A stretch of DNA of 64,000 bases from Sorex araneus (Eukaryota; Chordata; Mammalia; Eulipotyphla; Soricidae): positions 378,789,842 to 378,853,841 of the forward strand of contig NC_073303.1 of NCBI RefSeq assembly GCF_027595985.1, in the 5' to 3' direction. This document shows, piece by piece, positions 9,601 to 61,887 of this stretch (positions are counted from its first letter, which is position 1; every line of letters starts with the position of its first letter). The notes under the pieces were generated by a model. That model saw nothing but the letters and a program-made list of their open reading frames with translations. It was not told the DNA's origin and did no database searches. A program made the position numbers and the translations under genes.

Positions 9601-12600
9601 GTCCACACCCTGCGGAGCTGCTGCGCTCAGGCCCCTCCACGTCCCGGGAGGGTGCGGCTCTGGGGACAGCGTCCATGAGTCCTGTCTCCTGGCCCAGAGT
9701 CCCCTTCCTGCCCCGCGGGCCCCACTCCGCCCCGCCCTTGCAGCGCTGTCACCTCTGTGTGGCCTCTCGGGGACAGGGAGGCTGAGGCCGGGGGCCCTGC
9801 AGGCCTGTGTCCATCCTTGGCGTCCTGGGCCAGGCGCACGGGGCAGGGTGACAGAGGGAGGGACAGCTGCTCTCCACACGTGGCTCCCGCGCCCTCCAGC
9901 CCGGGGTCTCTCCTGTGCCCCCACCAAAGCGATGCCCCCGGGAGCCCCAGCGACGTGGGGGAGCTGCGGTGACCATCCCCTCTCCCAGGGGCAGCCCCAT
10001 GTCATCACGCCTCCTCCCTGCAGCCCTGGTCGCCCCGGCCTGTGTGGGAACAGGGCAGTCAGGGGGGTTTGGGCAGAGCGAGAAGTGGGTGTCCTTCCGC
10101 CGAGGAGATCATGGCCCTGGATGGACGGCCGGGCCCCCCTGACGGGCAGCCGCCCAGAATGGCTGTGGAGAGGGGCGGTGGGGGGGTGAGGCCCCCAGGA
10201 CAGGGCGGGGAGGGGCTGGCCTGAGAGAGGCGCGTCCCCCTGGATTTCAGTGCCCGCCCAGAGGACGCCCCGGGGGTCTGCGTCCTGCTCTGTCACCCTG
10301 AGCGGGCGTTCAGTGGCCCTTGGGGACGGCCTGTCACAGCCCCTGCCCACTGGGTGGGAGTCGGCCTGAGCACTCGCGCTCAGGGGTCCCCATGGCATGC
10401 ACAGCGTTGGGGTTCGGCGGAGCCTGTCGCTGCGCCCCAGCCACCTGACTCTTGGCTCCTCCAGGCAAGCTGTACGGCAGGGGCTCCACGGACGACAAGG
10501 GCCCGGTGGTCGGCTGGCTGAACGCCCTGGAAGCCTTCCAGAAGACAAATCAGGTACCACCTGCGGACCCTCCCCGGGGCCATCGGGAGAGCGGGCGGAG
10601 GACAGAGGTCAGGGCGTGGCGGGCGCTGCCCCTCACCTGTCAGCACATTGTGGAAACGCGCGGGTGTGGCCGTCCTGGGGCGTCAAAGTCCCATCCGGCA
10701 GCCTACGGGGCTGAGCTCGTGCCTGGCCGTGTTAGCGGCGGACAGTGAAAGTTATTTTAAAAGCTTCTTTCCTGGGGCTGACCCGGGTTTGACCCCGGTG
10801 AGCCGAGAACCTGAGCACTGAGCACTGCTTGGGAGATGCCCACGTTAAAACTTACTTTCTGACCTCACCGGGGATTTGTAAGAGGCCGAGAGCAGCACAC
10901 ACACGTGCATACATGTATATACAGATGTGCATGTGTATGCACATGCATGCACACACGCACACGCACACGCACGTGTGCATTTGACCCTTACTCATTCTCG
11001 TTGGTCTGAACCAGTGGCTATCCTAGCGTCGGCCGTTGTGTCTTCTGTCCTGTGTCGTGCTTTTGTCTCTGGTTTGTGTCGAGCCCCATCTCCGCCCTTG
11101 TGGGGTCCCCAAGAGGCCCCCGGGGACGGGGAGGCTGAGGCCGGGCGGTGCGGGGGGCCTGCAGACCTGTGTCCATCCTTGGCGTCCTGGGCCAGGGAGC
11201 ACGGGTCAGGGTGACGGAGAGGGAGGGACAGCTGCTCTCCACACGTGGCTCCCGCACCCTCCAGCCCAGGGTCGCGTGGCCTCCAGAGCGTGTGGAGCGC
11301 GAGGCCTGGGGACAGCAGGGTCCTCACGCGGCGGCGCTGTCCCCACACAGGAGGTTCCCGTCAACATCCGCTTCTGCCTGGAGGGCATGGAGGAGTCGGG
11401 CTCCGAGGGCCTGGACGAGCTGATCTTCTCGCAGAAGGACACGTTCTTCAGAGACGTGGATTACGTGTGCATCTCCGACAACTACTGGCTGGGGAAGAAG
11501 AAGCCCTGCATCACCTACGGCCTGCGGGGCATCTGCTACTTCTTCATCGAGGTAGCGTGCGTGCGTGTGCGTGTGAGTGCATGTCTGCATGCACGAGTAC
11601 AGGCAGTGCGTCATGTGTGCGTATGTGTGCGGGTGCGTACGCATGCTTGAGTATGTGTTGGTATATATGTGCATGCATGAGTACAGGCAAGTGCGTTGTG
11701 TGTACATATGTGTGCGGGTGCATATGCATGCATGAGTACTGCCGGCATATGTGTGCATGCACGGGGCCGTGCCTGCGGAGGCCTGGGAAAGGCCTGCTCA
11801 CTGCCTGCCCCAGCAGCACCAGGGCTTGCGTTTGCTCCCTCTGCTCGTCCCCTGACTGGTGTCCCCGAGAGACTGAGCAGGCTCCTGTCCGGGAGGGGCA
11901 GAAGGTGCTGGAATCTGGCTGCGGCCAGCCCTGCCTGCCTCACCCTGCCCACAGCTATGCCCAGAGGTCAGCCCAGGCTGCTGACTCCAGGTCCTGCTGG
12001 AGGTCCCCGTGGTAGGGCCCCCCTACGACTTTCACCAGGATGGGGGTCCGTGGCCCTCCTGTGTGTGCTTCTGCATTCGCCTTCAGTGGGGTATTTGGTT
12101 CACTCTGGCAGCATATTCTGTCCGAGTGGCTGTCACGTTCAGTTCACCAGCTTCTAACAGACCCAGCTCACCTGTGCTCAGATGCTCAGTCAAACAGGGT
12201 TAGCATGTCCAGCTCCCCTGGGTTAGCGTGTGCAAATCCCCTGGGCTAGCATGTCCAGTTCCCTGGGTTAGCGTGTGCAAATCCCCTGGGCTAGCATGTC
12301 CAGTTCCCCTGGGTTAGCGTGTGCAAATCCCCTGGGGTTTGCATGTTCAGTTCCCCTGGGCTAGCATGTCCAGTTCCCCTGGGTTAGCGTGTGCAAATCC
12401 CCTGGGGTTTGCATGTTCAGTTCCCCTGGGCTAGCATGTCCAGTTCCCTGGGTTAGTGTGTGCAAATCCCCTGGGCTAGCATGTCCAGTTCCCCTGGGTT
12501 AGCATGTTCAGTTCCCCTGGGCTAGCATGTCCAGTTCCCCTGGGCTAGCGTGTGCAGATCCCCTGGGGTTAGCATGTTCAGTTCCCCTGGGCTAGCATGT

Positions 12601-23579: not shown

Positions 23580-26381
23580 GTAGGCAGAGGCCCAGCCTCT
23601 CGCTGTGCGGGCTCGGGTCCGACCCTAGCACCCTTGGGCCCCCCGCACGGCTGGACGCGTGTCCCCGATTAGCAGGTGGGCAGAAGGCAGGGGCTCCCGT
23701 GGGCGCGCGCAGGCCGGGGGGCGTGCCTAGGCCGGGGGCGTGGCCTCAGCCCCGCTCTCGCGCAGACCCTGCGGGAGTGGGTGGCCGTGGAGAGCGACTC
23801 GGTGCAGCCCGTGCCCCGGCTGCGGCGGGAGGTGACGCGGATGATGGAGCTGGCGGCAGAGCACCTGCGGCGCCTGGGGGCCGGCGTGGAGCTGGTGGAC
23901 GTGGGCACCCAGCAGGTGTGGTCACCCTGGACGGGGGAGGGGCGCCTGCGGGACCCCCGCCCCTGCCCCCAGCCGGGGCAGTGGACTGAGTCCTGGGACT
24001 GAGTGGACTGAGGAGCCTGCAGGGCTGGGAGGGGGCAGGGCTTGCGGACGGGACCCCCCCCCACGAGGCGTCTGGGCTTCGCGCGAGGACTCCGCCCTCT
24101 GTGTGTGTGTGCAGCTGCCCGGTGGCCAGAGCCTCCCGCTGCCGCCCATCATCCTGGCAGCGCTGGGCACAGACCCCGAGAAGGCCACCGTCTGCTTCTA
24201 CGGACACCTGGACGTGCAGCCGGCCAGCCGGGAGGACGGGTGGCTCACGGCCCCCTACTCACTCACCGAGGTGGACGGTCAGTGACGGGGCGTGGCCTGT
24301 TGTGCCCAAGGGCCTCGCCAAGAGGGGCCCTTAGCGCGAGCCCGGGCGGGAGGGGCTTGACTTTTGTCCCTCCCCCTGCCCGAGCCGGGACCCTGCACGG
24401 CTCCCACAAGTCCCACTCCCAGGTCACGAGGAAAGACGATGGTTGGCCGCGGGCCAGGTCCTCCCTGGGTACGAGTAGGACCGTGTCTCCTGGGTGGAGG
24501 AAGGCCGTGCAGATGTGCTCGGACCCGGGGGCTCGCTCCGTGGCATGGCGCCTCCCTGGGGAGAACCCGGGTGGGGGGTGGGGGCGGCGGCAGCTGTCAG
24601 TGCATTTCCACGGCCCAGCTGGCTCCGGGCCCCCAGGCGCTGGCCGAGTGTCCCTCCCTCTCAGCCGCCCCATCTTTGCAGGCAAGCTGTATGGGCGCGG
24701 GGCCACGGACAACAAAGGCCCGGTGCTGGCCTGGCTGAACGCTGTGAGCGCCTTCGGGGCCCTGGGCCAGGTGAGTGAGCCGGGTGATGGCTGACAGTGA
24801 CCCTGACTCGGAGACGATGAAGGGGACGGGGTGCCCGGCCGTAAGCTCTCTGTGCCCCCTCTTCCCCGAGACCCGGAGCCGGGCACCACAGCCGCTTTAC
24901 TGCAGAGGACGGTGAGGCTCGGGGAGATTCCGGAACTTACCAGAGACACCCTCCCCCCTCCCCCCCCAGTCTGGTGACTGTGGCAAGAAAGAGTCACAGC
25001 AAGCGCTCGCAGGGGGCTGTGTGCCGGGCAAGGCGCTGCCCCCTGGAATATCTCTGCATCCTTGAACTCTTTTTTATTTTTTAAATGTTATTAATTTTAA
25101 TTGAATCACAGTGAAACATAGTTACAAAGTTGCTCATGGTTGGGTTTCAGTTATACAATGTTCCAGTTCCCTTCAGAAGTGTACAGTTCCCCCGGAACCA
25201 CCCCCCAGTTTCCCTCCCTCACCCGGGGCCCCTATGGCAGGCACCTCTCTCTCCCTCCCTCTCTCTCTGCCCCCTCCCTCTCCCTTTCCTCTCTCTCCCT
25301 CTCCCTCCCTCCCTCTCTCCCTCTCTCTCCCTCTCCATATCTTCTCTTTCCCTCTCCCTCTCTTCTCTCTTCCTCTCTTCTCTCTCCCTCTCTCCCTCCT
25401 CTCTCCCTCTATCTCTTCTCTCTTCTCTCTCCCTCTCTCCCTCTCTCTCCCCCCTCTCTCTCTCCCTCTCTCTCTTCTCTCTCTCTCTGTCTCTCTGTCT
25501 CTCTCTCTCTCCCCCCCTTCCCACTTTCAACACTCAGTTCTTGTCCAAAGTGGGTGTTTCCAACTATTAATGCCATACTGGCCCTTCTCTATCCTAACTG
25601 CTCTCCCTCCTTCCTGTCCCCCGCTCCCCACCACATACAACACTATAAAAATTACTTGCCACTGTTTGCAAGGAACTGGAGCAATAGCACAGTGGGTAGG
25701 GTGTTTGCCTTGCACAAAGCTGACCTGGGTTTGATTCCTCCGCCCCTCTCGGAGAGCCCGGCAAGCTACCGAGAGTGTCCCGCCGCACAGCAGAGCCTGG
25801 CAAGCTCCCCGTGGCATATTCGATATGCCAAAAACAGTAACAACAAGTCTCACAATGGAGACGTTACTGGTGCCCGCTTGAGTAAATTGATGAACAACAG
25901 ATGACATTGCTACAGTGCAGTGCTACTGTTTACAAGTCACAAGCATGGCACAGTGGGTACGTGATGGTCTGAGTGAGTCTCCCAGCCCCTTTCTGCACCT
26001 GTGGAAAGTAGTCTTTATTCGGGTCCCTATTAGGGTTTTTTTGAGAAGTGAGGGTTGACATTGAGGAGGAGCCTCCACCCACCCTACTTAGTACTATATT
26101 CATTTTCTAATCATCACTGTATCATTGTATCACTGTCATCCCATTGTTCGTTGATTTACTCGAGTGGGCACCAGTAATGCCTTCATTCGTCCCAGCCCTG
26201 AGATTTTAGCAGCCTCTCCTTACTCGTTTTTCCCAACTATTGGAGGCTCTTTTCAGGGTCAGGGGAATGAGACCTGCTATTGTTACTATTTTTGACATAT
26301 CAATATGCCACAGGGAGCTTGCCAGGCTCTGCCACATGGTCAGGATACTCTCGACAGCTTGCCGGGCTCTCTGAGAGGCAC

Positions 26382-26418
<37 letters not shown>

Positions 26419-28676
26419 GGAAATATATATATATTTCCCTCTATGATTTTGTGGAAAATGGTTAGGGAGTGTCTTTTGATATGTGCATGTGTATGTATGT
26501 GTATGTGTATATGTGTGTGTATGTGTGTATGTGTTGTATGTGCATGTGTGTGCATGTGTGTATGTGCAAAATATATACAAAATATATATTCTAATCCTCA
26601 GCTTACAGCCACATGTGAGCTAGTTCAGTGTTTAGAAAGTTTCTCAGTACGAAGCTCTAGAACTTGAGTTCAGCTCCTGGAAACTTCTGGAGCGTCTGAA
26701 GGAGCCCCTCACCTGCCCGTCTCAGGCCTGGCCCGTGCAGCGTCTGTCTGTGTGACTCCCTCCGTGTGGAGGAGCGTGTCACGACTCCTGGGAGTTTCTG
26801 CTGTCCCTCATCACCTGCCTCTTACAGACCCCAACTTGCAAGTTACAAAGACCCAGAAATCAAAACCAAATGCGGGGGAAAGGCGTACTGTAAAGATTTC
26901 AGAGGGGCTGCTCCGTGCCGTGACGTTAGAGAGAAACTCCAGGCTGGGTGGAAAGACAGAGTCGGCTCCCAGCTGAGAAACGGCAGACGCAGGAGACGGG
27001 GCGACCCTGAGGCTCCGGCCTCGCAGGGGAACTCGCCTCCTCGTGCTCTGAATGGAGACCTGAGCTCAGTGAAGCTGAGGGAAGCTCCTGTGGGGGAGGA
27101 GGAGGGAGCCGCCCTCTGGGCGCGTGTTTTCTCAGGATTTCTCTGTCGCAGGCCTCGTGTGGGTGGGGAGGCTCAGACACGGCTGGGGGTGCCCACGGCC
27201 CCTGTTCCGAGGGGGCGTCCAGGCTGGATCGGGGCCGCGGGAAGTGGCCTGGAGCTGGTCTTGACCGACAGCCCTGCGGCTGGCTTGCTCTCCCAGGACC
27301 TCCCCGTGAACGTCAAGGTCATCCTGGAAGGGATGGAGGAGGCGGGCTCCGTGGGCCTGGAGGACGTGGTGCGGCGGGAGCGGCACGGCTTCTTCGCCAG
27401 CGTGGACTACATTGTGGTCTCCGACAACCTCTGGCTCAGCCGCACCAAGCCGGCGCTGACCTACGGGACGCGGGGGAACAGCTACTTCACAGTGGAGGTG
27501 CCGCGTGCAGGGCAAGGCGTTCTCCGTCCACCCTGAGCCGGGCACCCGTGGAGGGAGGGTCGGGCGGGGGGGCCCAGCTGGCAGGAAGAGGGGAAGGACC
27601 CCGAGGGGATGTGCCGCCTCCGAGACACTGGAAGCCGAGCGCTCCTGAAGGAGCAGCTCTCGGCGGGCGGGCGGCTCTGCCTCTCGGGAAACAGGCGAGG
27701 GGTCAGGCGGGAGCTTGGGGGAAGTCCTGGGCTCCGTGCTCAGTGGTGAGTTTCAGCAGCGAGGGTGCAGCGGCGCATGGAGACAGCAGGGCCTGCATGG
27801 AGGCCGTGGGGTGAGAGGGACTCTGGACAGAGGAGGAGACGTCCAAGGGGACACGGGGCCAGCGTCCAGGGAGACTGGAGGTCGTGTCCGAGGACAAGAG
27901 AAGGACAGAGAGTGAGACCGGGTCATACAGCTCGGCCAGGCCCAGTTCAAATCCTGGTACCACAGTTCCCAGCATGGCCAGGTGCGGCCCAAGCCCTCAG
28001 CCCGCTCACCCCCAGACAGCATGTGCCAGAAAGCCAGGGAGGAGACTTTGGGGGGCCGGGCAGAGACCCCGAAGCCCAAGAAGGCCGCACTGCATTGGGT
28101 GGAGAGACGAGAGCCAGACCCCAGTATCTTGGGGGACAGTTGGGGTTGAGTCGTCTCGGGTGTGAGGGGGAAGGCAGGGTGGCCTGCAGGTGGGGGGCTG
28201 GCGGCACACGGGGTGACCAGGCTGCAGTGGCCCGGGAACTGCTGGCCTGCCTTCCAGGTGAAGTGCCGAGACCAGGACTTCCACTCCGGGACCTTCGGCG
28301 GCATCCTGCACGAGCCCATGGCTGACCTGGTGGCCCTCCTGGGTAAGGCCTTCCCTCGGGAGCCTCCGAATTGGGGGGTCTGCTCTGGGGTCGCCCACAG
28401 GCATGACATAGGGAGGGAGCAGGAGAAAGGCCCCTTCTCACCTGCCTGCCCCTCACATGCTTTGGAAGCTTTGCACTGAGCCCGGCCAGTTCCTCATTCT
28501 CCCCCCTGTCACCCTATGGTTCAGTACACATAAACGCATATGTGCATGTGCACATGCACACACACATGTACACACATGCACATATACACACGCATATACA
28601 CACCCACATGCATGCACACACATATACATACATACACGTACACACACACATGGGCATACACATGCACACACACACG

Positions 28677-36475: not shown

Positions 36476-37570
36476 AAAAGGAGCCACTATACCTTTGCTG
36501 AAAGATATAAAGGAAAATGCCTTTAATAAACGAATGCACAGGAACAAGCATCAGGGAAATGGGTGTTGCTGCGTGAGAGTATAAAGACACAGAGACACTC
36601 CAGAATGATAAAGTGCCGGAGGGGCTGTGGGCATGGCCTGAGGGGCACAGAGCCAGCCCTGAGGGGGTGAGGCCCAGTGCTGCACCCTTGGCACTACGTA
36701 CCAGCTCCCAGCACCACTGACCTGAGTACCTCTCTCTCTCCAGAAAGAGAAAAACTGAAAGCTGCCACAGGGAAATAGAACAAATTCCTGACAGAAAACA
36801 CAAGAGGGAGAGATGAGTTTTCAAGACCAAAAGGAAGACAGAGACTCATGGAGACCTGTGGGCAGTGGCTGGGCAGGCCTTCTGTAATTCCCATCCTCTT
36901 AAATGGAATCACGGATACCAAACAGAACTATTAATACAGTGGGATTAATGTTTTCTAGTGTTAACTGCTTCCTTCCTGAGTGTCAGCTGTGACATTCATC
37001 TGTAATGACTTTTGGAAATTCTTTAGAAGATGTAAGAAATTAAAGAACAAGATAAAAATGAGCACAAAGGTGTCTAAGGACTGAGAAGAGCATGGGATAA
37101 GTGCATCTAATTGGTAAGAGCCAGTTCCCATAATTTCCGCACCATATTTGATGGAGTTCAAATACGGTGTGAACTATGGGAACACCTGTAAGGGCGATTA
37201 GAGGCTGCCCTAAAAGCCTCCATCCTTCTCAGAGAGCCCGGCAAGCTACCGAGAGTACCCCGCCTGCACGGCAGAGCCTGGCAAGCTACCCATGGCCAAA
37301 GACAGTGACAATAATGGGCCTCATTCGCCTGACACCGAAAGAGCCCCCATTATGGCAGCGTTAAGAAGGATGAGCAAGGAGAGGCTGATAAAATCTCAGG
37401 GATGAACTAGACTGTGAAATGAAGAAGGACTAAAATGACTGCCTATATTTTCAACACACATACGCTGGCGTCAGAAGTATCCATCAAGGACCTGATGATG
37501 CAAGTGCAGAAGATCAAGTATGACATCATTGGTTTGATTAAAACGAGAAGGCATCAATCACATCATGCCA

Positions 37571-37743
37571 TTTTTTTTTCTTTTTGGGTCACACCTGGCA
37601 ATGCACAGGGGTTATTCCTGGTTCATGCAGTCAGGAATTACTCCTGGTGGTGCTCGGGGGACCATATGGGATGCTGGGAATCGAACCTGGGTCAGCCGCG
37701 TGCAAGGCAAACACCCTACCCACTGTGCTATCACTCCAGCCCC
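37571..37743 (-). mobile_element. SOR-type SINE inserted in the RTE LINE
   Basis: Reverse copy from a T-run to tatcactccagccc, flanked by the duplication catcatgccattttt (left at 37,561, right at 37,746). It splits the endonuclease region of the LINE. Confidence 0.96.
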
Positions 37744-39435
37744 AACATCATGCCATTTTTGACACTGGAGAAGAATTGTTCCTCAGAACATGTGACAACA
37801 GAGGTGTCGGTGGCGTCGGTGTTCTTGTCAACACAAACTTGGCCATGAGCATTGATTCATTCAATTGCCTAACAACCCGGATCGGATGATTACGCTTGAA
37901 TAGATGTGGCTCACTGCTGGCAGTTTCTATCTTCATCGTCTACGCACCAACAACCAACTATGATGAAGAAAAAATTGAGAAGTTCTACATGGAGCTGGAG
38001 AAGTTCTATAAAGAAGACCACACCTTCTACAAGATCACTGTTGGTGATTTAGTGCCAAGATAGGACCGAGAAGGTCACCCGAAGAACTCCACATTGAGAC
38101 CCACGGCCTAGAATGGAATGAACAGGGTGAGACACTGAGTTCCTCATGTTGACCAAGACCATCCACGGTAACTCACAGTTCCAGAAGGCCGAATCTAAAC
38201 CTTGGACATAAGAATCTCCCGGTGGACAGTTCCACAACAAAATTGACTACATCATATTCAATCAAAGGTTTTGCCTGACCTATGTTGCTATTATCCCCAA
38301 ATTCCAAACAGGATTGGACTACCATCTCCTTCGTGCAAAATTCTACTTCACAGAGCAGGGAGAAAGGTCGGCAAGGTTTAAGTTTAAGAAGAAAACTCCC
38401 AGAATGACGACCAACTGGGAGCTCTTTGGCACTATTGCAGCAACGTGGGGAGATGCCGTCATTGACAACATCAACAAGGAAAATGATCGACTGGTTCAGC
38501 ACCTCCATGACTGCACAAAAAATGCCAAGAGTGGGAAAGCCACAAACAGACGGCTGTCTTTGGAAACTCTCAAGTTCATTCACCAACGTGGTTTGGCACA
38601 AACCAACATCTGAGGTCACAAAGCTGTGCAGAGAAGCGATAAAGGAAGACCTCAAAGAGAGAAGAGCAGCAGTATTGGCCAATGCAGCAGAAGCTGGGAA
38701 AAGTATTCACAACGCTCGCTTGTCCTTCGCCAACTACAAGATCAAGATGACTGCCCACCAACGTCCTGATGGATCTATCACATCATTCAGAAGGGCAATG
38801 GAGAGGATTATTCATGACTTCTACTCGGATCTCTTGACAGCCACGTTCACCTGCCCACATACCAAATTCTGCAGGATGGATATGTCATTCCCAAAATTCT
38901 CCCTTCCGAAATCTGACACTCCATTTTGTCAGTAAAAATGCGTACAGCACCCAGTCTAGACAAGATCAGACCTAAACACCTGAAGAATCTGCCACCAGAA
39001 CTCATCAATACACTTGCTCGGCTCTTCAGACGCTACCTGTCCGTAAGAAAGATTCCATCCCAATGGAAAACTAGCAGGACCATTCTGTTGTACAAGAAGG
39101 GAGACATCCACAACATCGGCAACTATTGCCCAATCTGCCTGTTGTCCATTGTCTACAAGTTGTTCACTCAAGTCATTCTTAATAGAATAGGAAGAACACT
39201 AGACGTAAGACAACCATGTGAGCAAGCCGGGTTCCGAAAAGGATTCAGCACAATCGACCATATCCACACAATAATCAAGCTCATTCAAGATGCCGCTCTG
39301 TCTAACGTTCATCGATTTAAAGAAGGCCTGTGATTCTGTTGAGACTGAAATGGTCATTGAAGCCCTAGCCAAACAAGGTGTTCAAACTCAGTACATCAAG
39401 ATCCTCCACGAGCTATATTAAGGATTCACCACCAG

Positions 39436-39672
39436 CAAAAAGCAAACAACAACAACAACAACAAAAACCAGGGGCTGGAGAGATAGCACAGCAGGGAGGG
39501 CATTTGCCTTGCATACGGCTGACACGGGTTCAATTCCCAGCATCCCATATGGGCCCCTGAGCACCGCCAGGAGTAATTCCTGAGTAGTGCAGAGCCAGGA
39601 GGAACCCCTGTGCAATGCCAGATGGACCCAAAAAGGAAAAAAAAAACAGAAAGAAAAAAGAAAAAAACAAGC
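39436..39672 (+). mobile_element. SOR-type SINE inserted in the RTE LINE, with an extra tail-like leader
   Basis: SINE head ggggctggagagatagcac starts at 39,471 and the A-rich tail ends near 39,672. The duplication attcaccaccag is at 39,424-39,435 and 39,673-39,684. Between the left duplication and the head lie 35 bases (caaaaagcaaacaacaac and so on) that look like a SINE tail. Confidence 0.93.
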
Positions 39673-40862
39673 ATTCACCACCAGGATCTCACCATTCTAC
39701 AAGGAAGTGATCATTGATGTAAATAGAGGGGTTTGGCAGGGGGATACCATTTCACCAAATCTCTGGAAGTGCCATTCTAGTCATGTGACGACTAGAATGA
39801 GAGGGAATGGGAGTGAAGATAGATGGTCGGCAACTACACCACCTCCGCTTTGCTGATGACATTGTTCTAATAACACCAAATATTAGCCAAGCGGCACACA
39901 TGCTGGCCGACTTCAACCATGAGTGTGGAAAGGTCGGACTGCAGCTAAATCTCACCAACACAATGTTCATGAAATATGAACTAGTCTTCATGAAATATGA
40001 ACTAGTCCCTGATGTTCCATTTGCTCTCCACAGAATGAACATCTCCAAATGCAGCAGCTGTGTGTACCTGGGTCGAGAACTCAACATTGAGGAATGACTT
40101 GGCGCCAGAACTGCGCAGGAGGAAGAGAGCAGCACGGAATGCCTTTAAGAGCAAAGAAGTGGTTAAGAGGATGAAGAACCTCCGGCTCTGGGCACATCTT
40201 TTCGACTCCACCGTTCTTCCTTCACTAACATACGCCTCAGAGACCTGAGCCCTACGCAAACAGGATGAGAACGCTATTCGGGTTTCCCAAAGAGGAATCG
40301 AAAGAGCTATGCTAGGAGTATCACGTTTCACTCAAGTGAGAGAAGGAATCCGGAGTTCCGACCTTTGATGATCAAGAATCAGGGACGCTGTCTTGTTTGC
40401 CAAGGGGTCGAAAATCAGATGGTCTGGACAGGTAATGCGATTTAGACCGATCTAGACCACTGGACTAGAGCTGTTACCGACTGGATTCCATGGGATGTCA
40501 AAAGACCGCATGGCTGCCCACCTACGAGATGGTCAGACTTCTTTGTCAAAACCTGAATGAACAGTTTGAGGCTCTTCGTGTTCCTTGAGCGAGCAGATAC
40601 CATTGGGCTACACTAGTACGCAACAGGGACGAATGGAGACGTTACTAGCACCCGCTCAAGTGAATCGAAGATCAACGGGATGACAAGTGACAAGTGATAC
40701 CAAGTGAATTGGTAAGAGCACTGGCTCATGGTAATTTCAAATGTTGGTAGTTCTACTGGACAGCTGAATTTGTCCATTTTCTTCAGAATCACACAGTGAC
40801 ATATTGATGGCACACAGGTGTCACATTGGCAATATATTTTCAAGTGATTTTGAAAAAATATG

Positions 40863-51721: not shown

Positions 51722-51901
51722 ACTTTTGGGCTTGGGCTACACCCGGTGTTCTTAGGGGTTACTCTTGGCTCTGCACTTAGGAATCACTCCAGGCAGTGCT
51801 CAGGGGACCATATGGAATACTGGTGATCAAACCTGGGTCAGTTGGGTGCCAGGCAGATGCAAAGCAAGGCTGATGACCCACTGTATTATTGCTCTGACCC
51901 C
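51722..51901 (-). mobile_element. older SOR-type SINE
   Basis: Reverse copy, diverged: ctacacccggtgttcttagg, ccatatggaatactgg, tattgctctgacccc. Confidence 0.82.
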
Positions 51902-51923: not shown

Positions 51924-51954
<31 letters not shown>

Positions 51955-52115
51955 TTTTGGGTCACACCCAGCGATGCTCAGGGGTTACTCCTGGCTTTGC
52001 ACTCAGGAACTACTCCTGGCGGTGCTTGGGGGACCATATGGGATGCCGGGGATCGAACCCGGGTCGGCCGCGTGCAAGGCAAACGCCCTACCCGCTGTGC
52101 TATCGCTCCGGCCCC
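51924..52115 (-). mobile_element. SOR-type SINE with long poly(T) end
   Basis: Reverse copy starting with a T-run of about 27, otherwise near consensus. Flanked by cagtttaaacattttt on both sides (51,913 and 52,116). Confidence 0.96.
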
Positions 52116-53801: not shown

Positions 53802-53929
53802 AGAATAAGACTCAGTTGAGATTTGGAGAGGGCTACTGTGTTTGAAAGGTTCTGCCTAAAGGGTTTTGGGATTTATTAGTTTGCTAATTATTTATTAAAA
53901 TTTTATAATTATTTATAATAAATAAATAG

Positions 53930-54146
53930 GAAGAGCCTGGCAAACTCCCCGTGGCGTAGTCAGTATGCCAAATACAGTAACAATAACAGGTCAAGGGAAT
54001 ACCCTTGATCCTGAAAGAGCCTCCGATCATTGGGAAAGACGAATAAGGAGAGGCTGTTAAAATCTCACAGAGCTGGGACGAATGGAGATGTTGCTGGTGC
54101 CCACTCGAGCAAATTGATGAACAGTGGGATGACAGTGACACAGTGA
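53930..54146 (+). mobile_element. internally deleted 'mini' RTE element, 5' truncated
   Basis: agagcctggcaaactccccg, then ctgaaagagcctccgatcat, aggagaggctgttaaaatct, then the LINE 3' end (gggacgaatggagatgttgc onward). Flanked by aattatttataat-like words, as expected of target-primed insertion with 5' truncation. Confidence 0.87.
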
Positions 54147-54389
54147 TTATTTATAATCAAATTATTAATTAAATCCCCACTTTTTCATATTACAAGCTTA
54201 TATTTTTTGTTTGTTTCAGTGAGAGAACAGAATTAAACCAAGTGAAGTTGTGTGTAAAAACCTAGTCAGTGTTTTATTTGGGCTACCTTACATGTCAGTC
54301 TCTGGGCAAGGCTGGGGTGGGAACAAGAGGCTGGGCTGGATGCTGGAGGAGGAGGGGTGGGGGAGGAGGGTTTGCTAGAACCAGACATG

Positions 54390-54539: not shown

Positions 54540-54791
54540 GGTGGGGGTGGAGCGATAGCACAGCATGTAGGATGTTCGCCTTGCACGGGGCGGACCTGGG
54601 TTCGATTTGTCCGCCCCTCTTGGAGAGCCCGGCAAGCTACCGAGAGTATTTCGCCCCCATGGCAGAGCCTGGCAAGCTACCCGTGGTGTATTCGATATGC
54701 CAAAAACAGTAACAAGTCTCACAATGGAGACGTTACTGGTGCCCGCTCGAGCAAATCGATGAACAACAGGATGACAGTGCTACAGTGATAC
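54540..54791 (+). mobile_element. chimeric SINE: SOR-type head plus RTE 5' and 3' pieces
   Basis: ggtggagcgatagcacagca head with B box ggttcgatttg, ttggagagcccggcaagct, attcgatatgccaaaaac, then gagacgttactggtgcccgc and a cagtgatac end. The best-preserved copy of this family in the window. Confidence 0.92.
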
Positions 54792-56564: not shown

Positions 56565-56814
56565 GTATCACTGTATCACTGTCATCCCGTTGCTCATCGA
56601 TTTCCTCGAGTGGGCACCAGTAAGGTTGCCATTGTGAGGCTTGTTGTTACTGTTTTTGGCATATCTAATATACCACGGGTAGCTTGCCAGCCTCTGCCGT
56701 GGGGACGAGATACTCTCAGTAGCTTGCGGGGCTCTCCACGAGGGGCAGAGAAATCGAACCTGGGTCGGCGGCATGTAAGGTGAATGCCCTACCTGCTGCG
56801 CTATCGCTCCAGCT
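56565..56814 (-). mobile_element. chimeric SINE: SOR-type head plus RTE pieces, reverse
   Basis: Reverse copy: tatcactgtatcactgtcat end, cagtaaggttgccattgtga, tttttggcatatctaatata, aatcgaacctgggtcgg and the head complement gctatcgctccagct. Confidence 0.9.
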
Positions 56815-59965: not shown

Positions 59966-60241
59966 CTAAACGCACCCCGTGCCACCATCTCCCTGCCTTG
60001 AGTTCCTCGGACTTCTGTTTTGGAGAGTTGTCACCATTTCAAGTTGCATGTAGACATTTTTTTAAGCTTCCTTTTCAATCTTCTCCCTGAAGTAAATGTT
60101 TTAGAAAATATAGAAAAGTCTCAGGAAGAAAAAAAAATTTCAATTTCATAATGTAAGGTGGGGGACTGTTATCTGATGGACTTAGAACTATATTCAGTTT
60201 GAAAATTTGGTACTGAATTTATATATATATGTGATATGTGT

Positions 60242-60487
60242 ATCACATCACTGTCATCCCGTTGCTCATCGAGTTGTTCAAGCGGGCACCAGTAATGTCT
60301 CTCATTGTGAGACTTATTGTTACTGTTTTTGGCATATCCAGTACTCCACGAGTAGCTTGCCAGGCTCTGCCGTGCGGGCGCGATACTCTCGGTAGCTTGC
60401 CGGGCTCTCCGAGAGGAGTGGAAGAATCGAACACAGGTCAGCCTCATGCAAGGCGAACGCCCTACTGCTGTGCTATCACTCCAGCCC
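60242..60487 (-). mobile_element. chimeric SINE: SOR-type head plus RTE pieces, reverse
   Basis: Reverse copy: cactgtcatcccgttgctca, ttgttactgtttttggcata, tcggtagcttgccgggctct, then gctatcactccagccc. Flanked by tgtatcacat-like words on both sides, so the insertion site is probably intact. Confidence 0.92.
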
Positions 60488-61887
60488 ATGTATATCACAT
60501 ATATATAGATATATGTACTTTTAGTCATTCAGATATTTGATACCTAATAATTTATATTCCAGATGTCTTGTTGCTTGAGTTTTATAGTGTGTGTTAGCTT
60601 ATTGACTTGTGAATTCCAGTGTTTTCCAGCATAAAATTAGTAGTCTTGGTCTTTCCCCCCTCCAGTTCTTTTGTAGCCATTATACTTCCTCTTTTCTCTG
60701 TGGCCTTGACAAATTTGTCTAAGCAAGAGCAGTGTGGGACTTGTCTTTAGCTGTCTTTTCAGTTATTTCCCCCAGATTTACATGTGGGAAATCATCCCAT
60801 CTTCTAGTTTTTCCTGTTAGAATGAAAAATAAATCCATTATTAATACAATTAATAATTTCTGTTTTCTAGATTTAGTTACTGACAGTTGCAGAATTTCAG
60901 AGATTTTTCATTCAGTTCACAGTCTGTACTTCTCATTTCCCAATGAGGAAACTGAGGCTAAGCGAAGTGAAGTGATTCCCCTTCTTGTCAATGTGCTCAG
61001 TCTTCCTGCCTTTTATAATCCTTCTCACCTGTCTTCCAGATTTCAGTGTCATTGTATTATGTCCCTTCTACCTTTTATTCTCCTTTCCTCAGCATTCAGA
61101 TTTGACTTGTTTCATTTTCTTTGCTTTTTGAAAAAGATGAAAGGAGAATTTAAGGAAATTATGCTAATTTTATCATGGAATCATCTTTTTTAATGGCTGT
61201 ATTATAAATTCTTAAAAATAAAGGGTCTAATGGAAATACTTAATGAGAAAGTAGGGGCTCTGTCACACTTAACCCCTGCCCCGCTTTTTTCGAGAATAGA
61301 CCGTTTAAACTAAATTAAGTAAAGGATATAAATTTTGTTGTTTCAGTTTTAATATTTCATGACTGATTTTATAGATGAAATTATATTTTACAATAAATAG
61401 GAAGAAGCGTTTATACAGCCTGTTGTATTTGATGTGAGACCGTACACCCATTTCTCTGTAGCTGTAAAGAAAATTCATTATAGTGTCTTTAGTTGTAAGA
61501 GATGGTTTCACTCTGGTTAGTTAGGTTGATAATAAAACAACCTTTTCAGATGGCATCAGACACAAATGATCCTATGTGCCTGCTTTTAATGGCTTGAGGT
61601 TTTGTCATGCTTTATTTTGCTCATAGACTCTTCATTTTCTCCCATTTTTGTATCCTGATAAGAATTTTTCTTTTAAATAAAGTTTAACCAATCGGATGGG
61701 GATAATTAATTAAAAATACTTTTTGAAAGAAGATATATTAAATTTTGTATAAAAGTCTGATTACAGAAAAATTTGTTCAAATTGGTTAATATAAAATTGT
61801 CATGGAATTAATTTCATCCTTGAATCAATTCAATATGTTTGGGAAATAATATTTGATAGGTAGGGAGATTAAAAAAAAATCACCTGA

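What the first reader, a model, noticed from the sequence alone, without database searches (positions are those of the whole stretch)
54540..54791. A chimeric SINE carrying both ends of the RTE LINE behind a SOR-type head
Seen: four copies (25,672; 54,540; 56,565; 60,242) start with the same tRNA-like head as the SOR SINE. They continue with about 100 bases matching the LINE's 5' region (37,218-37,312) and end with about 70 bases matching its 3' terminus (40,636-40,700). Many SINEs borrow only the 3' end of their partner LINE; having the 5' part too is much rarer. Inference: this SINE is mobilised by the RTE machinery, not by L1, which would explain its lack of a poly(A) tail.
Basis: seen in the sequence. 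Interest (0 to 1): 0.85.

Follow-up and report, generated by a model that had tools for sequence, protein, structure and literature searches.

The report
Shrew SINE riding a nematode-type LINE
A short jumping element in a shrew genome joins the promoter end of an ordinary shrew element to two pieces of a LINE whose closest known relatives sit in parasitic roundworms, and its insertion scars indicate that it moves with that LINE's machinery and not with the usual mammalian one.

Summary
Four window copies share a SOR-type head, then LINE 5' UTR, then the LINE 3' end. The head/LINE junction occurs 27,657 times in the 2.4-Gb genome (reversed control 0). LINE copies run unbroken through the borrowed 5' part. 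The borrowed 3' part is mostly coding: it encodes the last 18 residues of the LINE ORF, 15 of 18 identical to a Nippostrongylus RTE protein. All 114 named proteins among the 120 listed relatives are from Strongyloidea nematodes, as published for RTE1_Sar. Mobilisation by RTE is supported: chimeric copies have a T-tract 10-11 bases before the target duplication (13 of 16 cells in held-out copies) and an (ACAGTGAT)n tail, while SOR copies with nearly the same head have A-richer tails and mostly insert at A-runs. An internally deleted RTE family was also found (5,774 junctions). New member of a known kind, with an unusual history: a SINE that appears to have switched engines to a horizontally acquired LINE.

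The parts
25673..25920 (+). chimeric SINE copy 1 (SOR-type head, LINE 5' UTR part from about 25,738, LINE 3' part from 25,854); target duplication 25,657-25,672 / 25,921-25,936 (14 of 16)
54540..54789 (+). chimeric SINE copy 2, the given finding; LINE 5' part from about 54,610, LINE 3' part from 54,723; no detectable target duplication
56565..56814 (-). chimeric SINE copy 3; no detectable target duplication
60249..60487 (-). chimeric SINE copy 4; target duplication 60,488-60,500 / 60,236-60,248 (12 of 13)
37122..40706 (+). RTE-clade LINE (RTE1_Sar type), 5'-truncated, decayed, with two SOR insertions (37,576-37,743 minus; 39,471-39,639 plus)
   Evidence: 13/13 target duplication at 37,109-37,121 and 40,707-40,719; RVT_1 E 6.8e-18 on joined pieces; named relatives all Strongyloidea among 120 listed
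37212..37316 (+). LINE 5' UTR stretch that supplies the SINE middle
40634..40690 (+). last 18 codons and stop of the LINE ORF, source of the SINE 3' part (tail continues to 40,706)
26114..26380 (-). internally deleted RTE copy (5' UTR joined to C-terminal end), no tRNA-like head
53920..54145 (+). second internally deleted RTE copy, 5'-truncated, target duplication 53,908-53,919 / 54,146-54,157 (12 of 12)

Best explanation
This is a tRNA-like-headed SINE that is copied and inserted by an RTE-clade LINE of the RTE1_Sar type. The element consists of the first ~66 nt of the resident SOR SINE (with the A- and B-box-like promoter motifs, recalled), then about 105 nt of the LINE 5' UTR, then the last 18 codons of the LINE ORF with a short (ACAGTGAT)n tail. 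Shown here: the three-part make-up, its genome-wide spread, descent of both LINE parts from the LINE, the target duplications, the tail, and an RTE-type insertion signature that differs from that of SOR. Inferred: pol III transcription from the head; recognition of the 3' part (ORF end plus tail) by the LINE reverse transcriptase for target-primed reverse transcription; origin by template switching between SOR RNA and LINE RNA at the B-box end (only CC is shared at the junction); and horizontal arrival of the LINE from a nematode, for which the published case rests on RTE1_Sar in Sorex araneus. The role of the 5' UTR part is unknown; a bipartite tail in other RTE-mobilised SINEs suggests that it helps to recruit the LINE protein.
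For: Three-part structure and LINE continuity. Junction counts with 44-nt patterns at up to 3 mismatches: chimera 27,657 (13,881+13,776), internally deleted RTE 5,774 (2,841+2,933), unbroken LINE 1,077 (522+555); reversed controls 0 each. Target duplications of 9-17 bp in 24 of 43 copies (39 genome and 4 window copies). T at -11/-10: 21 of 32 cells in 16 copies (15 of them those in which the positions were noticed), 13 of 16 cells in 8 later copies, p 1.1e-5; T at -12..-9: 58 of 96 against 32% background. First four bases of the duplication: A in 28 of 96 for the chimera, 25 of 28 for 7 of the 10 SOR duplications scoring >= 9 (Fisher p 2e-8); with the 3 left-out ones it is 35 of 40 by hand, one of them starting CC. 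A fraction of the 30-nt tail 0.43-0.87 in 16 SOR copies, 0.30-0.37 in the 4 window chimeras; no A-run over 2 in the tails of the 24 chimeras. SINE-encoded [18 protein letters not shown] matches a Nippostrongylus RTE C-terminus 15/18; best of 2,000 shuffles 10. 114 of 114 named proteins among the 120 listed are from Strongyloidea. 157 LINE-like 3' ends lie within 3 mismatches of the SINE-type sequence, none exact.
Against: 19 of 43 copies show no duplication passing the cut, among them the given copy. The copies studied are the best matches to one window copy, not a random sample. The TA step of the published signature is only partly seen. No notable RNA structure was found: z +0.6 to -1.4 for the 3' and 5' parts, -1.8 for the whole element; 1 of 16 and 0 of 25 predicted pairs covary. 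The place of the window LINE within the nematode tree is open. Nothing here measures transcription or movement.
Confidence: 0.92

Rival explanations
1. The 37.2-kb match is a SINE lying beside the LINE, so the SINE middle is not LINE sequence.
For: In the window alone there is only one LINE 5' region to compare.
Against: The match lies inside the 13/13 target duplication of the LINE. 40 of 40 scored genome matches to the 313-nt LINE 5' region, the window's own included, align over most of it; 30 of the 40 were fetched and aligned. 40 of 40 scored matches to a hybrid query, partly the same places, run from the SINE-type 5' part towards the ORF start. The unbroken LINE sequence occurs 1,077 times.
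Confidence: 0.01
2. The chimera is moved by L1, like SOR, and only carries RTE pieces as passengers.
For: Nearly the same head as the SOR SINE, which has L1-type tails and sites.
Against: No A-tail; duplications do not start with A-runs; T-tract 10-11 nt upstream, as published for RTE-clade LINEs and their SINEs (PMC13295347, abstract, Introduction and Results).
Confidence: 0.03
3. The LINE parts came not from the LINE directly but from the internally deleted RTE family, which acquired a SOR head and lost about 80 nt.
For: Chimera and deleted family share two states against the LINE sample: T at alignment column 122 (43/43 and 30/30, LINE 6/30) and T at column 204 (42/43 and 30/30, LINE 1/30). 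None of the 8 further LINE copies closest to a SINE-type query has the second state (my reading). Both families have the TGG-TGC-CCG 3' codons. The odds were raised from 0.30 to 0.35 on this recount.
Against: The chimera keeps the LINE-type CCTCC-CCCTCTC stretch before the hairpin, where the deleted family has a TA-rich stretch. Some LINE copies carry the first state (L104, L105, L107 and L108), and LINE copies with a nearly SINE-type 3' end exist.
Confidence: 0.35
4. Assembly artefact or nematode contamination.
For: Nearest listed LINE proteins are nematode.
Against: Scored copies on contigs C1 to C12, joined to a shrew SINE head, with duplicated flanks in 24 of 43; the window's own copies lie on the contig that carries CNDP2 and CNDP1 exons.
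Confidence: 0.01

Closest known systems
AviRTE-mobilised SINEs of birds (ManaSINE1, GymnSINE and others; Suh et al. 2016, PMC4844689, passages read)
   Same: Promoter head plus bipartite tail from 5' and 3' ends of an RTE LINE that was shared horizontally with nematodes; several lineages with different heads.
   Different: Birds and filarial nematodes, a different RTE family. There the 3' piece is described as the full 3' UTR; here it is mostly ORF end. Here the head is that of a SINE still present with its own L1-type tail.
Bov-tA and Bov-A2 of ruminants; Ped-2 of springhare (Ohshima 2013 Table 1, PMC3747384, passages; Gogolevsky 2008 seen only in reference lists)
   Same: tRNA- or SINE-derived head with a Bov-B tail (Bov-tA, Ped-2, per the table; that they also carry a 5' Bov-B part is recalled); Bov-A2, with 5' end and tail of Bov-B, resembles the deleted family here.
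   Different: Partner is Bov-B, not an RTE1_Sar-type LINE. Ped-2 also reuses the head of an existing SINE (ID), so head reuse itself has a precedent.
RTE1_Sar LINE (Dunemann and Wasmuth 2019, PMC6542046, abstract, two Results sections and passages)
   Same: RTE LINE of Sorex araneus with closest relatives in strongylid nematodes, as found for the window LINE.
   Different: That paper's main text has 0 occurrences of 'SINE'; it treats the LINE only.
SOR / Sorex SINE (SA_Ba-325L16 in PMC8608897 Table 1, passages)
   Same: Nearly identical head (64 of 66). The published Soricidae primers match the window SOR consensus exactly; the probe differs at 2 bases (my reading).
   Different: SOR has its own body and an A-rich tail and mostly inserts at A-runs; the chimera has RTE parts and an RTE-type signature.

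Membership tests
RTE-mobilised bipartite SINE | small-RNA-derived promoter head | tested here: met
   Head equals the SOR tRNA-like head at 64 of 66 consensus positions. ARAGORN SOR heads as tRNA but none of the four chimera heads, so the tRNA origin rests on SOR.
RTE-mobilised bipartite SINE | tail part from the 5' region of the partner LINE | tested here: met
RTE-mobilised bipartite SINE | 3' end shared with the partner LINE | tested here: met
RTE-mobilised bipartite SINE | no poly(A); short tandem-repeat tail | tested here: met
RTE-mobilised bipartite SINE | RTE insertion signature (T-tract about 10 nt upstream of the target duplication) | tested here: met
   signature as in PMC13295347. 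The TA step is only partly seen: first base T 11, A 9, G 3, C 1 of 24.
RTE-mobilised bipartite SINE | dependence on the partner LINE protein in cells | not testable with these tools
   needs a retrotransposition assay
RTE1_Sar LINE | RTE-type reverse transcriptase with strongylid relatives | tested here: met
   RVT_1; 114 of 114 named proteins of 120 listed are from Strongyloidea
RTE1_Sar LINE | sequence identity to the Repbase entry RTE1_Sar | not testable with these tools
   Repbase is not held
Bov-B-mobilised SINE | partner LINE is Bov-B | tested here: not met
L1-mobilised SINE (SOR type) | A-rich tail and TT|AAAA target | tested here: not met

The most novel reading that the evidence does not exclude
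An L1-driven mammalian SINE changed engine: its promoter head was fused to a LINE acquired from a parasitic nematode, giving a second SINE with nearly the same head but a foreign machinery, and both kinds sit side by side in one genome. In this pair the RNA signal read by the RTE enzyme would lie in the last codons of the LINE's own ORF, so that one stretch is under both protein and RNA constraint.
Probability: 0.6. Interest if true: 0.68.

Novelty: new member of a known kind. Interest (0 to 1): 0.5.

Why it matters
It is a same-genome pair of SINEs that share a head but appear to use different insertion machineries, so the effect of the tail on choice of engine and target can be read from insertion sites. 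It would extend the consequence of the published nematode-shrew transfer from one LINE to tens of thousands of host-derived SINE copies. It also points to ORF-end coding sequence as the part that an RTE LINE and its SINEs share at the 3' end.

Tried and rejected
Headless copies as 5'-truncated SINEs or as an SVA-like composite: the sequence upstream of them is the LINE's own upstream 5' UTR. Each of 8 tested copies (of 30 fetched) matches 7 to 17 of 30 LINE copies at E <= 1e-8, so they are internally deleted RTE copies. Conserved hairpins in the 5' or 3' part: predicted, but with next to no covariation and no notable z-score. Known RNA families: no Rfam match at gathering level in 24,000-64,000. 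Relatives in viral contigs: three pattern scans, 0 matches. SINE 3' part as more ancestral than the window-type LINE part: 15 against 14 identities to the best nematode protein, not decisive. Age of chimera against SOR from window copies: K2P outside CpG mean 0.053 (n=4) against median 0.083 (n=23), not significant (p 0.12). The divergences were not used because its genome-wide sets are best-match selected.

Literature: eight searches of the held CC-licensed library. No listed title or abstract start describes a SINE with RTE1_Sar parts; for only 20 of 90, 133 and 100 papers were listed. The two papers that name RTE1_Sar were checked by passages. Repbase, Dfam, SINEBase and subscription journals could not be searched, so a database entry may exist. 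The name SOR and its first description, the content of Gogolevsky 2008, and the promoter box motifs are recalled.

Full report
What was checked. The four claimed copies, the two claimed LINE regions and the head were compared by blastn within the window and aligned. All four copies are there. Each has a ~66-nt head like the SOR-type SINEs, a middle matching LINE 37,218-37,296 (86-88%) and an end matching LINE 40,632-40,700 (76-81%). The homology to the LINE seems to start a few bases earlier, at CCTCC (about 37,212), directly after GGTTCGATT of the head. Against the consensus of 30 LINE copies the 5' part is about 105 nt; the window LINE itself lacks 13 nt in it.

Is it LINE sequence? The window LINE is bounded by a 13/13 target duplication at 37,109-37,121 and 40,707-40,719, so the 37.2-kb match is inside it. 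In the genome (G000, 2.406 Gb, 65 contigs; the window lies on C2) the 313-nt LINE 5' region has 8,020 first-look candidates. All 40 scored, the window's own copy included, match over most of its length. Of the 30 fetched, 25 continue into a common upstream sequence and 5, the window copy among them, do not by that test. A 241-nt hybrid of SINE-type 5' part and LINE continuation towards the ORF start matched 40 of 40 scored places at 92-95%, partly the same places.

Size of the family. The SINE query had 4,668 first-look candidates, and all 40 scored were near full length. A 44-nt pattern over the head/LINE junction, up to 3 mismatches, occurs 27,657 times; the reversed control 0 times. This is a lower bound, since older copies exceed 3 mismatches. 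The same kind of count gives 5,774 for the junction of the deleted family and 1,077 for the unbroken LINE, controls 0. A count for the second junction and one for SOR were asked for and not answered.

The 3' part is coding. Translation of the window LINE end and of the consensus of 17 LINE 3' ends (16 fetched of 40 scored, plus the window) gives ...RDEWRRYWHPLKQIEDQRDDK-stop followed at once by the tail; the window copy itself has two further stops there. Of the 120 RTE-type proteins listed, 30 end in a related motif (at least 8 of 18 identical to the SINE or LINE peptide). The SINE encodes [18 protein letters not shown], 15 of 18 identical to Nippostrongylus P0009; the best of 2,000 shuffled peptides reached 10. 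LINE-type ends with upstream ORF sequence and a nearly SINE-type 3' end occur 157 times within 3 mismatches, best 1 mismatch, so a fitting donor subfamily may exist.

The LINE and its host. The joined RT pieces give RVT_1 (E 6.8e-18). Of 939 protein matches, 120 are listed. By my reading 114 have names, all from Necator, Ancylostoma, Haemonchus, Nippostrongylus, Heligmosomoides, Parelaphostrongylus or Angiostrongylus, which NCBI places in Strongyloidea; 6 are unnamed. In a tree of 22 proteins the position of the window LINE among them is unresolved. This agrees with Dunemann and Wasmuth 2019, who found RTE1_Sar among mammals only in Sorex araneus and nested among nematode copies (PMC6542046, two Results sections); [quoted passage not shown] The host is a mammal: exons of CNDP2 (11,351-11,557) and CNDP1 (27,297-27,500) are present. 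Published Soricidae SINE primers match the SOR consensus (PMC8608897 passages). The species itself is not given; Sorex is an inference.

Mode of insertion. In 43 chimera copies (39 of the 40 scored genome copies, the 40th being the window's own, plus the 4 window copies), 24 have a target duplication of 9-17 bp with score at least 9 and p at most 0.05 against random flanks. Upstream of it, T stands at -10 in 18 of 24 and at -11 in 16 of 24. The positions were noticed in 16 copies (15 of them are in the first set); in the 8 later ones T is found in 13 of 16 cells (p 1.1e-5). This is the T-stretch about one helical turn before the duplication reported for RTE-clade LINEs and their SINEs (PMC13295347, abstract, Introduction and Results). 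The TA step is only partly seen: first base T 11, A 9, G 3, C 1; preceding base T in 14 of 24. By contrast the 16 near-full-length SOR copies in the window have tails with 43-87% A over 30 nt, and 10 of 16 have duplications scoring 9 or more. In the seven of these used for the comparison, A fills 25 of 28 of the first four positions, against 28 of 96 for the chimera (p 2e-8). I left out three of the ten: two of score 9, one of which starts CC, and one of score 15 that overlaps its neighbour's; with them it is 35 of 40 by hand. So two SINEs with nearly the same head insert differently.

The deleted RTE family. Two window pieces (26.1 and 53.9 kb) join LINE 5' UTR to the same C-terminal end at another junction, without a tRNA-like head. 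Genome-wide they have variable 5' ends. In 9 of 30 fetched copies a flanking repeat of 11 or more was found; of these I count six as credible, and three are distant or simple sequence. Their upstream sequence matches the LINE's own upstream 5' UTR, with a TA-rich stretch. They resemble Bov-A2 or RTE1-N1_LA type elements. Chimera and deleted family share two states against most of the 30 LINE copies, so they come from a common LINE lineage, or one helped to make the other; this is open.

What is known and what is new. A head plus 5'- and 3'-derived RTE parts is the make-up of all AviRTE SINEs (PMC4844689, passages) and, as recalled, of Bov-B SINEs, so the anatomy is not rare. What I did not find in the listed papers is a SINE with RTE1_Sar parts, or the side-by-side of two SINEs with one head and two machineries in this genome. 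Repbase and SINEBase could not be consulted. I rate it a new member of a known kind.

Noticed in passing
26,114-26,380 (-) and 53,920-54,145 (+): Internally deleted RTE family (5' UTR joined to the ORF C-terminal end, own junction), 5,774 junctions genome-wide within 3 mismatches.
   Followed up: partly
37,122 and L051-L080; L045, L048, L049: The window LINE is 5'-truncated; 25 of 30 fetched copies continue into a common upstream 5' UTR. In the upstream part of three deleted-family copies a stretch of 64-137 nt occurs twice, about 370-410 nt apart.
   Followed up: partly
37,576-37,743 and 39,471-39,639: Two SOR insertions inside the LINE, the first with a 16/16 duplication, so SOR was active after this LINE copy landed.
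   Followed up: yes
51,725-51,901 and 51,949-52,115: Two SOR copies in a row whose target duplications overlap (AAAAAATGTTTAAACTG...), as if the same site was hit twice.
   Followed up: no
11,351-11,557 and 27,297-27,500: Exons of CNDP2 and CNDP1; the window is the carnosine dipeptidase locus.
   Followed up: no
G000, for example C2:381028747-381028801: 157 LINE-like 3' ends within 3 mismatches of the SINE-type sequence, some with a CGC codon that gives the nematode-like WRPLEQID; candidate donor subfamily.
   Followed up: no
P0011, P0013 (protein search): Unnamed ENA proteins of unknown origin with the highest identity listed (68% over 78% of the query) to the window LINE; they group with Haemonchus in the tree.
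   Followed up: partly
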